The notes under the pieces were generated by a model. That model had not been told where the DNA came from and searched no databases. It was given only the letters and a program-made list of their open reading frames with translations. DNA of 64,000 nt from Mayamaea pseudoterrestris (taxonomy: Eukaryota > Bacillariophyta > Bacillariophyceae > Sellaphorales > Sellaphoraceae): the NCBI GenBank assembly GCA_027923505.1, contig BROI01000002.1, positions 248,001 to 312,000 on the forward strand, given 5' to 3'. Positions 42,290 through 49,612 of the stretch are shown piece after piece. Numbering within the stretch: position 1 is the stretch's first letter; every line of letters starts with the position of its first letter. Both the position numbers and the translations under genes were made by a program.

Positions 42290-42719
42290 GATGATGATTA
42301 TGTATGCTGTAAATATAAGTTGTAAAATTAGGATCTTTCAACTTCTGTAGGATCTCTTGTTAGGTAATGAGTCAATAGGGTGGTGATTAGACGACTGTAA
42401 GCTTGCAAGGCTTTAAACACGTCTGTGAACAGTGAAATGATGTGACAGACGTCGGCATGAATGGCCATGGTCGATTTGGTCGTCTGCCTTTGATGTGTGC
42501 AACGTCATGTTTTCATCGCAGCGGTTATGATTCATTGAATGACTGTCGACCTTGGTGTACACATGAGAACGGACATACACGACTGATGGTTAGTTTCCGG
42601 CTTCGCGTATCGCGTTCCGGAACGGATGACCGCGATGATGCGATCCTCATCACTCGTCGTCGACATGATCAATGATCACACACTATACAGCATGCTGATT
42701 GACCAAGACCACGACTACA
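42290..42719. promoter_or_regulatory. Divergent promoter region DRG1 / flavodoxin, with short upstream frame
   Basis: About 430 bases between divergent starts. On the plus strand an ATG at 42692 (and one in the same frame at 42665) opens a short frame ending at 42727. It overlaps the flavodoxin start at 42720 and could reduce its translation if transcribed. Confidence 0.35.
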
Positions 42720-43406
42720 ATGCTTGACCTTGCTGCTCAAGCCAAGAATGTTGTTGACAGAGAGGAACAAGTTCTCGTATTGTATGGCTCGCAGCGAGGA
42801 TCCGCAGAAGCAGCTGCTGAACGAATCGCTGGAAAAATGTCGTTTCAAATAGCGAGTCGACTGCCATCAGACGTCAACACCAACAACACATCCAGATCCA
42901 GTATTACTCCCAAACTCATGGCTCTTGACGACTGGCTGGAAGCATCCGCGTCGGTTCCACTCACGCGACTCGTTGTCATTGTTTCGTCCAGTTTCGGAGT
43001 AGGAGGAGCCCCCCGGAACGGCAAACGCTTTCGAAGGCACTGCGAAAACATGTTGCGGCAACAATTATACACGAAAGAAAAACAGATGGAACATGACGAT
43101 GCGCCGTCGCTTCACATGCTCGGTAACATTCACTTTTGCTTGCTTGGACTGGGCGACTCGTCCTACAAGACGTACATGAGCAATCCACAGCGAATCCATG
43201 ACGCTTGGACGGCGGCGGGAGCAACGCTAATTGGAAGCATGGGCAAGGCGGATGGAAATGAAAGTATCGAGCGTCAGCAGTCTGCCATTGACGAGTGGAT
43301 GAATAGCATTTGGGGCCCCATGGCAAGCGTTTTGCGGGAAGCGGCTGCAGTGACGCGCGATCAACTGGTAGAAGCAACGAAGGACTTTGTTGGAGACGAC
43401 TTGTAG
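42720..43406 (+). CDS. Soluble flavodoxin-like protein, paralogue of the tail-anchored one
   Basis: 228 residues, single exon. The FMN loop LVLYGSQRGSAEAAAERIA lies at ~22-40, later contacts are VSSSFGVGGAPRNGKRF and LLGLGDSSYKTYM, and the C-terminal helix WMNSIWGPMASVLREA matches WSRNIWTHLEQVL of the gene at 15567-16520. No tail anchor and no FAD module. The chosen start is the first ATG in frame; it gives a 20-residue extension before the fold. Both paralogues are free FMN modules of the diflavin-reductase type. One sits at a membrane and one is soluble, so they may serve the same partner in different places. Confidence 0.83.
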   Translation: MLDLAAQAKNVVDREEQVLVLYGSQRGSAEAAAERIAGKMSFQIASRLPSDVNTNNTSRSSITPKLMALDDWLEASASVPLTRLVVIVSSSFGVGGAPRNGKRFRRHCENMLRQQLYTKEKQMEHDDAPSLHMLGNIHFCLLGLGDSSYKTYMSNPQRIHDAWTAAGATLIGSMGKADGNESIERQQSAIDEWMNSIWGPMASVLREAAAVTRDQLVEATKDFVGDDL

Positions 43407-43747
43407 TTTACTGTAAATCAAGAGCGTATGGCTGGTACTCTAATGGTACGTAGAATAAACTGCTCATTTGGTTGCATTATTTACTAGGCAGCCCCTGTAC
43501 AGTGAGCGAAACGTGAGTGTTTTAAGTGACGACCAAGTCCTTGAGAAGTCAGCGCCTACATGATGACACCTTATGATTTCGTTTCTTAGATATTATAAAT
43601 GAACCAAACCGTTATAGAGTATACGCTACGGATAATAATAATTCTCGACGTGATGTACGAGTAAAGACATGCACCCGCTTGAGTGTAACCATTGCTCAAG
43701 CCTTCCGCCATACCACCCCTGCCGCCTTATGTCAAATGCAATAAGCT
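43407..43747. other. Convergent 3' intergenic region
   Basis: About 340 bases between two stops facing each other. AT-rich with no gene or repeat seen. Confidence 0.35.
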
Positions 43748-46700
43748 TTACATAGCCGAATGAACAAGACAAGATTCAACAGGTTCGCTCATCGCCGAGT
43801 TTGTCTGGGATTGGATCACGTCGCTTTCAAACAAGGCCGAGCCAACAACGCGGGCAGCACGCGCCATGCCTTGGTTCATTGCAAAATGCTCCTCTTCAAC
43901 GACCCAGCTTCCTTGACTCAACTCCTCGTCATCACTTGTGCTTCCGCTCCACAAATCCTCCCCTTCGCTGGTCTTGGCATCCATTGCCACGCCGCGTTCA
44001 AACTCCTTGTTGAAATCGTCAATAGCGGCGGCAAACTTGTCAAGCGTTGCTCCGATATAACCAGCAGTTTCACCGTTTCCTTCCGCGTCATCCTTGAACG
44101 AAAGGTCACTGGTCGCAGACGGCGGCGAAGATGGTGGCGTTTGCTGTGACGTAAAAGTTTCCTCCATCAAGGCCGCCTTGCCAATCGACTTTGTGGCCAC
44201 AGTCGAGTCGTGCCATACTGCTTCCTTAAGCTTCTTCATCCCAAGAGATAATTCATCGCTGCCCGTTTGCGTAGATGAAGGAGGAGCCACAGTCGTCAAT
44301 GCTTTCACAACCATTTGCAAAGCTGGCTCGCCAATCGACTTTCTAGTCTTGAGCTTGCCCATCCCAACTGATGATTTATTGACGGGCCGAGATTTCGAAC
44401 CATTCTGAAAAGCAACCGTTAACTCGCGATTTACCGCGGCCTTGAGCTTGCTCATCCCATACGATGATTTGTCGTTGCGCTGATTGGAAGCAGCGAACAA
44501 CGGAGCTGCCTTTGCTGCCATCGACATCTCGACAGTTTTCTTCGCTCCTTCTTTACACTCCTTCTCCTTGACACCCCTGAGCATCTCATTAAAGTGTTTG
44601 ATGCTAGACTCTGCCTCCTCCGCATATAAACTGGCTGCACCGGGCCCCGTAGAAAATCCTTGACCCAAGCATCGATGACGCTGGCCCGAATGCTGGAATC
44701 GAGAGCGGCGAAAATGTTTGCGGCGCCCAAAATTAGCTCCAAGGCCACGGCCCTGATACCATTCTTCCTGGAAGGCTTGGTCGCGTTCTGCAATGTTGTC
44801 AGTGTGGAATATGAAGTCGAAGTAGCCGTCAAACCATTTACTCGCTCCGTACGTACCAAGTTCCGTAGGCTCAAACTCAAGATTGTTGTCTGTGTAACCA
44901 TCGTACACGTAGCACTCGCTGCAGAGGTCAAAGTCAAAGGCATTGAGTGCGTGGAAGCGCTGGCCAATAATGGGAGAAATCGAGCATCCGTCACAAGTGT
45001 GACGGCCATGAATAAAGGGTCGCAAATGGGTCCGCCAGTTAGTCGGAACTGATGTACCAACTGGAGCGGACAGGCCTGCAATAGCAGTCTCCACTGCTGG
45101 TACAGCCTGGACAGATACCGGATCTGGCGTCTCGTGTTTTTTATATTGAATCAAGCTTCGAGCCAAGAAATACATCGCCGCTAACAATTTGACAACAGGG
45201 GCGAATATCGCAGATAATGTCCGCCCGAGAAAAGAGCGTTCTTCGCGAGCCACGCCACCAGTAACCGAAACCTTTTCATCAAAAGGCGTCACATTGGCCA
45301 TAATTTTAATAAAACCCTTCCCATAGTGTGCCTGCAATGCGTCCACCAGCTCCTCCGCCGATCCAATCATTACATCGTCGCCAGTTGCGTCCAAATACAC
45401 CAAGTGGACGCAATATCCACTCGTAGACTGCGCAAGCGCATCTTCTCCAGTGAACGTCTGAACCGCGTAGAGCTTTAAAACATTGTACATGTTCTCATTC
45501 GCGCCCAAGTGATGCTTAAGATGGACGCGACGAAAAATTGCATCAACGCCTTTCACGCCTTTAATACAAAAGAAAAGAACGCGCATGTCAGAGCCCATTC
45601 AAATTAAACAAAACCTTTACAATATCTGCATGAGACGCACCAGTCTTCTTGACACCCAGCTTGATAAAAACATGCTGCGCAGCAGCCTTCTGCAAAACCG
45701 ACAATCCAAGCACACCCGCCGGGTTCGCAGTCACCTTGGTGGTCATATTCGGTAAGGCAACGTCCGGCACTCGAGCAGCAGCAAAACTTCGAAGTGGTTG
45801 ACGAAAAGACTCGCGTAATTGCTGACTGTTAGCTGGAGGCGCATGCACATGCATTGACGCCGCCCGTTCGTACGCTTTCATTGGTAGGCGCCGCCGCGGA
45901 CGCGTCTGCTCTTCTGGAGCCTCGGCAAGCGCGGCAAGATCCGCCGCCATTTGCTCCTCAGTAACCACGTGCTCCTTCATTTGTTCCGGCGACATGATCT
46001 CCTTGACAAGCGTCAAAAGCTTGGTGCTTGTAGTTTCAGCACTAGCCAAGTACTTTTCGGCGCGCTTCGTCTCCAACTCAACCTCATCCATCATTTTGTT
46101 GAGATAATCGAAAAGATGCATGTTTACGAGCCATTCCGATCGCTTCTTGGCAAAGTAAGCGCGCGTCGCTTCCAAAAGAGGCTCCTCAAGGACCGTCTGG
46201 TACAGTTGGAGCTTCGGCCCATCCATGGCTTGAATCATTTCCACAACTCTAGTCAAGAGTGCATAATCAACATTAATTTCGCCGTCTCGGCCCTTCTCAA
46301 CAAGCTCCAGCACGGCTTGCGTGGCTTGCGTTTGAATTGGTTCAAAGACGCATGTACGAAACGCATTGATTCCCGACTGCAGCAAACTTGGAAGAAACTT
46401 ATGCTTGGCAAAGTAGCGATCCAAATGTTTGAAGATTTTTTGGACCCACTTGTTGTAGTATTGATAATTCGTCCATTGCTTAACCAATTTTTCTAGTAGC
46501 TCATTGCAATCTCCGCCCGACGAGGTTACTTGCAGAATTGGCAGAACCTTGGTTTTCAGGTACTCTTTCACGGTTGCCTCGCGACGCTCCCAAAGCTCGC
46601 TTGCCCAATTGTAGGGACCGCTCTGCGTACTCATGTTGAAGCAGAGACTATGAGAAATGTTAATAATTAGAATACATTCGTGAGTGAATAGTGCAAGACG

Positions 46701-47020
46701 AGCAATCCATTGAATTCTCGCAGCTGCTGCAAAATACGCACGCGTATATGGCCGTGTATTCGGCCGGCGAAAACATTTTTTCGCCCTTTTCCAAGCCTCC
46801 CTTTTCCATGACTTGTTCGAGGCGATCAAGCTGACACGAAATAGAATGACATTATAGTGTTAGTGAGTGAATATGATGTAAAAGCTGCAGCAGGAATAGA
46901 CTTGCTCATCGCGCTACCGTGACACTCCGAGCGACTCACCTTGGTTTTCATTTCGCTCCATCCCTTCTCCAGCGGAATAAAAGGATTTACAAAGCTGCGC
47001 TTTGCATTCATGGTGGTCAT
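43748..47020 (-). CDS. Cullin N-terminal region fused to PB1 and ZZ domains, no cullin C-terminal half
   Basis: Exons (complement) 46940-47020, 46742-46830, 45641-46647 and 43748-45558 (introns 109, 94 and 82 bases) give 995 residues. Cullin-type repeats lie at ~12-310: LEKGWSEMKTK, MFSPAEYTAIYALCFNMSTQ, SGPYNWASELWERREATVKE, HLDRYFAKHKFLPSL, GEINVDYALLTRVVEMI, LEATRAYFAKKRSEWL. The cullin homology and RING-binding parts are absent. A PB1 domain at ~382-483 is completed only by the last splice (HVFIKLGVKKT|GVKGVDAIFRRV, acidic YLDATGDDVMIGSAEELVDA). A hydrophobic stretch follows (~502-530), then a ZZ finger (~578-620, CDGCSISPIIGQRFH ... DFDLCSEC) and three repeats around S-x-GM-x-KLK. Cullin N-termini bind Skp1/BTB adaptors; PB1-ZZ pairs mark p62/NBR1 receptors. 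The joint function is unknown. Confidence 0.8.
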
Positions 47021-47768: not shown

Positions 47769-49391
47769 TTATTGATGGTAGTATTGCTGCTGCTGCTGCA
47801 GCTGTTGCGACGCTATCATAGAAGCCTGGCCATGTAGTTGCTGCGGATACGTACCGGACAATGGCTGATGCATTCCATTTTGCATTTGCATCATTTGCTG
47901 CGGCAACTGCTGATACTGCACTTGCTGCGGCTGCACCATGTATGAAGCTGGAGCATTGTAAACTCCGCCAGGCTGTCCTGGCACAGCAAAATCAGGCGTT
48001 GGACTTGGTTGTCCCATAGGACTCGCGGCTGCATGGACACCATGCTGTTGCACGTCGTCTCGCAGCCGACTTACTTGCTTACGCAGCATGCCGACATGGG
48101 GAACCTCACCAATGCGATTCCGTAGAAAGAAAGCGGAGTGAAGGTACGAACACACCTTGGCTTGCAGCTTCAGTGCCGACGTGTCCACCGTTGGTCCTCC
48201 TTCAAAGCCTGGAACCTCCAGTTTCGACAAGACTTGCTGCTGCAAACATAAAAGTTGCCTAAACTCCCATGCTATCCCCGTCATGACGTTTTGCCGCTGC
48301 TGCATGCACGTCGATTGGAATGCTTGCCGCTCCGACTCGTTCATTTGTTGGACGGCCGACGCTGCAACGCCAGCAACCGCCAAGCGGTCGTCGAGGGTTG
48401 CTTCCAGTCGGTCATGCTCTCGCGTCATTGTTTCGTCCAACGTGGCAATGGCCGTCTTGGCTTCCGTTTCCTTCAATGCCTGCAATGTCCATAAACCTTG
48501 GCAAACATTTAGCAGCACTGAACCTAATGGTCCAAGCAAAATCTCTACCAGTTTCAAGGCCAACATTGCACCAAGTATATCTTTAGCCGTCGGATCGGCC
48601 AATTTTGGAGGAGATGGCTGAAACAGCGACGGGTCAGGTCGGTGTGCGGGCCCGCTTCCGTCTCGAATCATCCAACCAGCGGCAACGTCTGGAGGCAGCG
48701 TTCCTTGCTGAATGACTTCCGCAAATGTATTCGATTCCTGTGCAACTGCTTCGGGCATGACAACATATGTCTTGCTGTCTTGCCATTGATGCTGCTCATG
48801 AGAGAATACACCAGGTACAGAGAAGGAGTCGGCTCGAAAACGTTTCGCTGGACGATGTGCATCCTGCTGCTCCACTTCATCGGAAGCAACAGTTTCGGGA
48901 CGCAGCGCACGTTCACTCTCCACCGCCGCCTTCAATTCGCGCAGCGTCAACTCTGCGTTCGACTTTTGCATCATTTCCAAAAACTCGTTCCACAACAACC
49001 CTTGATCCTGCTCATCAATGAGTTGTGAATCTTGTATCAAGACTCGTATGTAAACATTTTGCGCCGACTTTATCTTGGCTCGTTCTTCCAGGAATCGCGC
49101 ATACTCCAGCCAGACTCTGCCAACATGCTTCGCCACAGGATCCGACACGGCTTGCTCATAGATTTCGGTAGCCGTTTTAAACTGTTTGTGATTGGCGTAG
49201 AATTGTGCGTACGCGATCCACAGCGTGGCGATTGCCTCCGTGAGCGTTTCCGAGTGATGGCCTTCGCGCGCGTCATCGGACCATTCCAGTAGTGCACTCT
49301 GAAAGACCATGGAGCCACCGTCAATGTCAGCATCATTTGCTAGCTTTTGGTTGGCTGCTTGAATAATAGCGTTGGGATCGTACTTGTCCAT
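47769..49391 (-). CDS. HAT/TPR-type repeat protein with Gln-rich tail, possible RNA-processing factor
   Basis: 540 residues, single exon. At ~45-165 are several half-a-TPR (HAT) units: LTEAIATLWIAYAQFYANHK, FKTATEIYEQAVSDPVAKHV, GRVWLEYARFLEERAKIKSA and LLWNEFLEMMQKSNAELTLR. A basic patch (HRPAKRFRADSF) may be a nuclear signal. A helical region at ~290-430 (ILGAMLALKLVEILLGPLGS, long coiled stretch) follows, and then a Gln/Pro/Met-rich end. HAT arrays occur in pre-mRNA splicing, 3'-end and rRNA processing factors; no closer match is seen. The start at 49391 (MDKYDPN) is the first ATG in frame. The copia element begins ~42 bases upstream of it. Confidence 0.78.
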   Translation of the reverse strand: MDKYDPNAIIQAANQKLANDADIDGGSMVFQSALLEWSDDAREGHHSETLTEAIATLWIAYAQFYANHKQFKTATEIYEQAVSDPVAKHVGRVWLEYARFLEERAKIKSAQNVYIRVLIQDSQLIDEQDQGLLWNEFLEMMQKSNAELTLRELKAAVESERALRPETVASDEVEQQDAHRPAKRFRADSFSVPGVFSHEQHQWQDSKTYVVMPEAVAQESNTFAEVIQQGTLPPDVAAGWMIRDGSGPAHRPDPSLFQPSPPKLADPTAKDILGAMLALKLVEILLGPLGSVLLNVCQGLWTLQALKETEAKTAIATLDETMTREHDRLEATLDDRLAVAGVAASAVQQMNESERQAFQSTCMQQRQNVMTGIAWEFRQLLCLQQQVLSKLEVPGFEGGPTVDTSALKLQAKVCSYLHSAFFLRNRIGEVPHVGMLRKQVSRLRDDVQQHGVHAAASPMGQPSPTPDFAVPGQPGGVYNAPASYMVQPQQVQYQQLPQQMMQMQNGMHQPLSGTYPQQLHGQASMIASQQLQQQQQYYHQ

Positions 49392-49432
49392 TGCACTGTT
49401 TGTTTGATTGTTTAATTGTAATGGGACGCATG

Positions 49433-49612
49433 TGTTGAGCACGGATGAGAACCCAAACCGAAGCGGCAGCGGTGACGTCACGAAGACGGTCACGTTTAAG
49501 TAAGCGCGGTAAGCGGCAACCGAAGGAGTGGATCGAGGACGATCACTTCTTGGAGAAAATAAGTAAAGTGGTTTTATTGACTCTGTTCTGCTTAATCATT
49601 AGTGTCGCTTCA
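49433..49612 (+). repeat. 5' LTR of copia element
   Basis: 180 bases starting TGTTGAGC and ending CGCTTCA. It matches the copy at the other end base for base as far as read by eye. It holds a perfect TGACGTCA palindrome (49473-49480), the classical CRE/bZIP site, which could serve as its promoter element. Confidence 0.93.

What the first reader, a model, noticed from the sequence alone, without database searches (positions are those of the whole stretch)
43748..47020. Cullin N-terminus joined to PB1 and ZZ domains in one protein
Seen: four exons with GT-AG ends and matching phases join cullin repeats to PB1 and ZZ. The cullin part reaches back to the true family N-terminus (LEKGWSEMKTK, AEYTAIYALCFNMSTQ). 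The last intron (45559-45640) has a GTGCGT donor, a pyrimidine tract and TTAAAG, and its removal completes beta strand 1 of the PB1 with the expected Lys (HVFIKLGV). Known: cullin N-termini dock Skp1 or BTB adaptors; the C-terminal half recruits Rbx1 and is missing here. PB1 plus ZZ is the p62/NBR1 autophagy-receptor core. Inference: an adaptor that brings F-box- or BTB-bound cargo to a PB1-driven polymer, or a dominant-negative regulator of SCF ligases. I know of no described protein with this layout.
Basis: partly seen in the sequence, partly recalled or inferred. Interest (0 to 1): 0.88.

Follow-up and report, generated by a model that had tools for sequence, protein, structure and literature searches.

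The report
Cullin-1 half fused to p62-like receptor
In the diatom Mayamaea pseudoterrestris the front half of a ubiquitin-ligase scaffold (cullin 1) is fused to a p62-like protein of the self-eating pathway that has lost its ubiquitin-binding parts, which hints at a direct link between two disposal systems but has not been tested at the bench.

Summary
On the minus strand, 47020-43748, lies one intact gene identical to NCBI model MPSEU_000117900 of the diatom Mayamaea pseudoterrestris (972 aa). It has five exons, not four: a 69-nt intron (44856-44788) was missed. Residues 46-287 are cullin repeats (Pfam E 6e-37), about 383-486 fold as PB1, 576-610 match ZZ. Both parents survive in the genome: a full cullin assigned to CUL1 (41.8% identical) and a p62-like protein, MPSEU_000909300 (PB1, ZZ, and motifs resembling UIM and UBA; 42%). 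The four introns keep position and phase, two from each parent, so the fusion arose at DNA level inside exon 3. An assembly or gene-model accident is very unlikely; low dN/dS and an open frame argue against a pseudogene. The fusion lost the UIM and UBA and gained a cullin arm without an RBX1 half. None of 24 relatives shows a cullin; 7 of them are cut inside PB1 and cannot tell. Best reading: a ubiquitin-independent adaptor or decoy that brings SKP1-F-box modules into PB1 assemblies. SKP1 and Atg8 binding are inferred only: conserved cullin positions are about half kept, and the W-motif is not canonical. New variant of known kinds, one species so far.

The parts
46940..47020 (-). Exon 1, start codon at 47020, aa 1-27 (PLEKGWSEMKTK)
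   Evidence: Matches NCBI model; intron 1 phase 0 at the CUL1 position
46831..46939 (-). Intron 1, 109 nt, GTGAGT...CAG
   Evidence: counterpart in the CUL1 gene
46742..46830 (-). Exon 2, aa 28-56 and 2 nt
46648..46741 (-). Intron 2, 94 nt, GTGCGT...TAG, phase 2
   Evidence: counterpart in the CUL1 gene, same phase
45641..46647 (-). Exon 3: cullin repeats, linker (about aa 288-378) and PB1 beta strand 1; holds the fusion junction
   Evidence: 423-aa stop-to-stop frame
45559..45640 (-). Intron 3, 82 nt, GTGCGT...AAAG, phase 1
   Evidence: counterpart in the p62-like paralog gene
44857..45558 (-). Exon 4: rest of PB1, linker with hydrophobic helix, ZZ
44788..44856 (-).
   Evidence: counterpart in the paralog gene
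43748..44787 (-). Exon 5: tail and stop
45957..46776 (-). Cullin match, aa 46-287 (Pfam positions 15-250 of 620), span includes intron 2
   Evidence: E 5.9e-37; 41.8% identical to the CUL1 of this genome over aa 15-273
45278..45671 (-). PB1 domain, about aa 383-486, span includes intron 3; K386, R402/R403, D449, D453, E461/E462
45146..45223 (-). Hydrophobic helix aa 505-530, best 19-residue Kyte-Doolittle mean 1.95 at 507-525
44906..45016 (-). ZZ, aa 574-610, one zinc-ligand set (C581, C584, C605, C608)
   Evidence: E 4.5e-10; alignment
44579..44620 (-). Eroded UIM-like stretch, aa 683-696 (EEAESSIKHFNEML)
   Evidence: Alignment, motif scan
43889..43909 (-). W-motif SWVVEEE, aa 920-926, at the place of the LIR-like motif of relatives

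Best explanation
A lineage-specific chimeric gene. A copy of the 5' part of the CUL1 gene (exons 1-2 and part of exon 3) was joined in frame, inside one exon, to a copy of the diatom p62-like receptor gene. Shown from sequence: both parents, inherited introns, intact frame, loss of the UIM- and UBA-like parts and of the cullin half that binds RBX1, retention of PB1, ZZ and conserved tail helices. Inferred: the PB1 lets the protein co-assemble with the p62-like paralog; the cullin arm docks SKP1-F-box modules; F-box proteins and their clients are thus drawn into PB1 bodies, and through the paralog perhaps to autophagy, without ubiquitin being written or read by this protein. The same docking would lower the SKP1-F-box pool open to true SCF ligases. 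Architecture about 0.95; mechanism about 0.35-0.4.
For: Cullin and ZZ matches, PB1 fold; same gene model at NCBI; introns shared two and two with the parent genes; CUL1-type rather than CUL3-type (CUL3 and CUL4 identified); UIM- and UBA-like motifs in 21 and 22 of 24 relatives but not here; one SKP1 and one ATG8 match in the genome; the N-terminal 249 aa of human CUL1 handle SKP1 binding and a 1-452 CUL1 binds SKP1 but not RBX1 (PMC4737497, passages); open frame and low dN/dS.
Against: Positions shared by diatom and human CUL1 are kept at 14 of 27 in repeat 1, 3 of 6 in the H2 stretch, 5 of 8 in H5. No canonical W-x-x-[LIV] in the tail; the paralog's motif is altered in the same way. Middle OPCA acid is T451. 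No transcript, binding or location data. The cullin part was modelled without alignment depth (block pLDDT 41-78).
Confidence: 0.4

Rival explanations
1. Natural dominant negative of SCF: the cullin arm titrates SKP1-F-box from CUL1, and PB1/ZZ only set dose, place or turnover; no cargo is delivered to autophagy.
For: Truncated CUL1 is a laboratory dominant negative (PMC4737497, passages); RBX1 half absent; no canonical LIR in the tail, UBA gone.
Against: Needs the same SKP1 docking, whose residues are only half kept; does not explain why the tail around the W-motif is the best kept part (63% identity to the paralog).
Confidence: 0.25
2. Neofunctional scaffold: the cullin repeats no longer bind SKP1 and serve as a helical arm or for another partner of a PB1-ZZ protein.
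For: About half of the CUL1 positions conserved to human are changed (36 of 67 kept); aligned human M43 is T53, and is V in the diatom CUL1.
Against: The tyrosines aligned with human Y42 and Y46 are kept (numbering recalled); identity to CUL1 is a little higher in repeat 1 (46 of 102) than in repeat 2 (48 of 132).
Confidence: 0.22
3. Two separate products (a short cullin-like protein that reads through intron 3 to a stop, and a PB1-ZZ protein from an inner start) or a gene-model error.
For: Retaining intron 3 gives a cullin product that stops soon after the donor; an inner Met lies at aa 358. No RNA seen.
Against: PB1 beta 1 lies in the same exon as the cullin repeats; intron 3 is at the same codon and phase in the paralog; NCBI model agrees.
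Confidence: 0.06
4. Decaying chimeric pseudogene.
For: One species; UIM-like part eroded, UBA lost, no UBA remnant found downstream.
Against: dN/dS (NG86) 0.28, 0.16, 0.16 for cullin part, PB1-ZZ and tail, with saturated dS; 0 of 300 neutral runs free of stops at 0.1 substitutions per site.
Confidence: 0.05

Closest known systems
CUL1, scaffold of SCF ligases (copy in this genome at G000:C2:2065015-2066829)
   Same: Exon 1-3 layout, intron positions and phases, 41.8% identity over aa 15-273
   Different: Stops after about 285 residues of cullin; no cullin homology or RBX1/NEDD8 half beyond; called CUL1 by elimination
Diatom p62-like family (MPSEU_000909300 = P0002 and P0003-P0025)
   Same: PB1, one-zinc-set ZZ, tail helices, both introns
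   Different: Relatives have UIM-like (21 of 24) and UBA-like (22 of 24) parts and no cullin
p62/SQSTM1 and NBR1
   Same: PB1 then ZZ order; fold matches to NBR1 and p62 PB1 and p62 ZZ; Asp residues aligned with p62 D129, D147, D149
   Different: Cullin arm; no UBA, no canonical LIR, no FW domain; half of the ZZ zinc ligands missing
Laboratory dominant-negative CUL1 (residues 1-452; PMC4737497, passages)
   Same: Cullin N-terminus without RBX1 binding part
   Different: Here natural, shorter, and fused to PB1-ZZ

Membership tests
Cullin family | Cullin repeats at the N-terminus | tested here: met
   PF00888 E 6.2e-37, positions 15-250 of 620
Cullin family | C-terminal half with cullin homology and NEDD8 site (binds RBX1) | tested here: not met
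   No Pfam cullin match beyond position 250; the linker does not align to the CUL1 C-terminal half beyond chance
SCF (CUL1) scaffold | SKP1-docking surface | tested here: inconclusive
   Y52 and Y56 aligned with human Y42 and Y46, but 14 of 27 repeat-1 positions kept; binding not testable here
p62/NBR1-type receptor | PB1 domain | tested here: met
   Model and structure matches; 23 of 25 family members hit PF00564, this one does not
p62/NBR1-type receptor | ZZ domain | tested here: met
   PF00569 E 4.7e-10, positions 2-36 of 45; second zinc-ligand set missing across the family
p62/NBR1-type receptor | UBA domain | tested here: not met
   Motif absent, present in 22 of 24 relatives; no remnant in 43301-43800. 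The UBA label of relatives is itself weak (DSK2 UBA E 0.07; three helices)
p62/NBR1-type receptor | Canonical LIR W-x-x-[LIV] | tested here: not met
   SWVVEEE here and SWVVDEE in the paralog; canonical in 22 of 24 relatives
NBR1 proper | FW domain (definition of PMC9582228) | tested here: not met
   No PF16158 match in this protein up to E 10; not among the 25 of 26 families shown for the 25 members. The whole-genome search found none but its controls were silent, so it does not count
p62/NBR1-type receptor | Atg8 binding and autophagic turnover | not testable with these tools
   Bench assay needed

The most novel reading that the evidence does not exclude
A natural ubiquitin-independent selective-degradation adaptor: the receptor's ubiquitin-reading parts were exchanged for a CUL1 arm, so that F-box proteins rather than ubiquitin chains choose what enters a PB1-driven body. 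It would wire SCF substrate receptors straight into a p62-type polymer.
Probability: 0.25. Interest if true: 0.82.

Novelty: new variant of a known kind. Interest (0 to 1): 0.6.

Why it matters
Cullin-RING ligases and p62/NBR1-type receptors stand at the entry of the two main routes of selective protein disposal and are usually thought to communicate through ubiquitin. A natural fusion that drops ubiquitin reading and ubiquitin writing together, yet keeps the adaptor-docking half of one and the polymerising half of the other in an intact, constrained frame, suggests a shortcut that small constructs could test. The surrounding diatom family is of interest too: it has a p62-like layout and shows no FW domain, in a stramenopile, while the review read here confines p62 to animals and defines NBR1 by FW (PMC9582228, section 6).

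Tried and rejected
Assembly or gene-model chimera: judged very unlikely, because the four introns match those of two separate parent genes and cullin repeats and PB1 beta 1 share one exon. Read-level support could not be checked.

CUL3/BTB origin: rejected by the position count; CUL3 and CUL4 are other loci. The PDB scores of the parent cullin alone do not decide (CUL3 363, CUL4A 359, CUL1 326 bits), so 'CUL1' rests on elimination.

UBA remnant after the stop: tblastn with the last 95 residues of relatives against 43301-43800 and a three-frame reading; best E 0.02, a short serine-rich stretch outside the UBA; none accepted.

The same fusion elsewhere: three protein searches. The first scored only the 8000 candidates sharing most words. 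The cullin-region search (4313 candidates) returned only the protein itself and no ordinary cullin at all, so its silence says little. The PB1-ZZ search (3010 candidates, lengths about 535-1701 aa) gave 28 proteins: this one, 24 family members and P0026-P0028, which I dropped as other ZZ proteins. None of the 24 hits PF00888. 17 of 24 start with Met 4-29 residues before beta 1 and are informative; P0003, P0004, P0008, P0011, P0012, P0014 and P0019 lack all or part of beta 1 and cannot tell.

dN/dS: the second method (YN00) failed for two of three parts; for the tail it gave 0.29/1.16.

Structure comparison: no cullin row appears; the cullin part had no alignment depth, and the listing is filled by PB1 and ZZ, so this is no evidence either way. 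No UBA row appears for the paralog model.

A possible trace of the old start codon (LSVLQK in the fusion facing MSVLAQK of the paralog) is seen by eye only; alignment A1 does not place it so.

In print: searches (listings) and passages of PMC7051960, where 'cullin' occurs 0 times, show no cullin-PB1 protein; the library is open-access only. The genome paper (Suzuki et al. 2022, reference named) is not held.

Full report
What is there. The finding lies on the minus strand of contig C2 of a 30.6-Mb genome. The protein is NCBI's MPSEU_000117900 of the diatom Mayamaea pseudoterrestris. I accept the fifth exon because the paralog has an intron at the same codon and phase and relative P0008 carries extra residues exactly there.

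The parents. The genome has five places with cullin signal. Of the three other full-length ones, L025 is CUL3 (555 bits against 395 for the next) and L026 is CUL4 (340 against 208). The fifth place matches only positions 396-601. The remaining full cullin, L024, on the same contig about 1.77 Mb away, I call CUL1 by elimination; its PDB scores alone do not decide, and its exon model is mine. The fusion is 41.8% identical to it over residues 15-273 and sides with it rather than with CUL3 at 63 against 13 of 180 discriminating positions. The PB1-ZZ half is 42% identical to MPSEU_000909300 on contig C22, the only other copy of this family that the genome search returned.

How it arose. Introns 1 (phase 0) and 2 (phase 2) sit at the CUL1 positions (intron 1 one residue off in the alignment); introns 3 and 4 (both phase 1) sit at the positions of the two introns of the p62-like gene. 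The junction is inside exon 3, in a linker of about 90 residues (288-378) for which I found no counterpart in either parent. This speaks for a fusion at DNA level and against retroposition or an assembly join.

What was kept and lost. In 24 relatives (P0002-P0025) a UIM-like motif occurs in 21, a UBA-like motif in 22 and a W-x-x-[LIV] motif in 22. The patterns and the labels UIM, UBA and LIR are mine, from recalled consensus; a PDB profile search gives p62 ZZ at E 7.8e-6, p62 PB1 at about 1e-3 and only a weak UBA hit (E 0.07), though the paralog model has three helices there. The fusion lacks the UIM- and UBA-like parts. Both Mayamaea copies read SWVV[ED]EE, one residue short of the relatives' motif. 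The tail from SFKDDAEG on is the best kept part (63% identical to the paralog). The ZZ of the family lacks the middle cysteine pair and the C-terminal histidines of canonical ZZ (recalled), but the three aspartates that I align with p62 D129, D147 and D149, needed for N-terminal Arg binding in p62 (PMC6197226, passages), are invariant in 25 of 25 (D582, D601, D603).

Is it functional. NG86 dN/dS is 0.28 (cullin part), 0.16 (PB1-ZZ) and 0.16 (tail), with dS of 1.6-2.9, that is, saturated, and averaged over both branches. In simulation without selection 22 of 300 frames stayed open at 0.02 substitutions per site, 1 of 300 at 0.05 and 0 of 300 at 0.1 (substitutions only). I take the gene as constrained. 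No expression data were seen.

How it may work. In human CUL1 the first 249 residues handle SKP1 binding, and a 1-452 fragment binds SKP1 but not RBX1 and acts as a dominant negative (PMC4737497, passages). The fusion carries the corresponding first part and keeps the tyrosines aligned with human Y42 and Y46 (numbering recalled). One SKP1 and one ATG8 match exist in the genome. Both PB1 faces are largely there (K386, R402/R403; D449, D453, E461/E462; the middle OPCA acid is T451; roles recalled from p62). So I prefer an adaptor or decoy that brings SKP1-F-box modules into PB1 bodies without ubiquitin. Against this, the fusion keeps only 14 of 27 conserved positions in repeat 1, 3 of 6 in the H2 stretch and 5 of 8 in H5 (stretch names recalled). 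The adaptor surface is not visibly protected, and a scaffold that has lost SKP1 binding remains a serious rival.

Novelty. The open-access library (listings) and passages of the PB1 survey PMC7051960 show no cullin-PB1 protein. PMC9582228 (sections 5 and 6) defines NBR1 by the FW domain and places p62 in animals only; PMC11449223 (passages) says that NBR1 is encoded in algal genomes but untested there. Among 24 relatives none shows a cullin, and 7 of these cannot tell. The fusion is a new variant built from known kinds, known so far from one species; NCBI lists it as a hypothetical protein with both Cullin and ZZ domains precomputed, so the pair was visible but, as far as I could search, not described.

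Noticed in passing
44162-44476 (-), aa 731-835: Three degenerate copies of a basic motif (GMSKLK, GMGKLK, GMKKLK) with KSIG following two of them; among the proteins fetched only the fusion has GM.KLK.
   Followed up: partly
45146-45223 (-), aa 505-530: Helix between PB1 and ZZ is hydrophobic enough for membrane contact in the fusion (Kyte-Doolittle 1.95), 1.31 in the paralog; low-confidence helix in the model.
   Followed up: partly
44906-45016 (-), and alignment A1: The ZZ of all 25 family members lacks the middle Cys pair; instead FIHGRHTCDGC before it is near invariant, which might supply other zinc ligands.
   Followed up: no
L023 (G000:C22:175000-181500): The diatom p62-like family has PB1-ZZ-UIM-LIR-UBA-like order without an FW domain, a p62-like layout outside animals.
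   Followed up: partly
P0003, P0004, P0005, P0007: Some relatives seem to carry two ZZ-like units in a row.
   Followed up: no
42699-43406 (+) and 47769-49595 (-): Neighbours: a flavodoxin-domain frame (E 6.6e-15) and a HAT/TPR-repeat protein with a glutamine-rich tail; neither resembles cullin or p62.
   Followed up: partly
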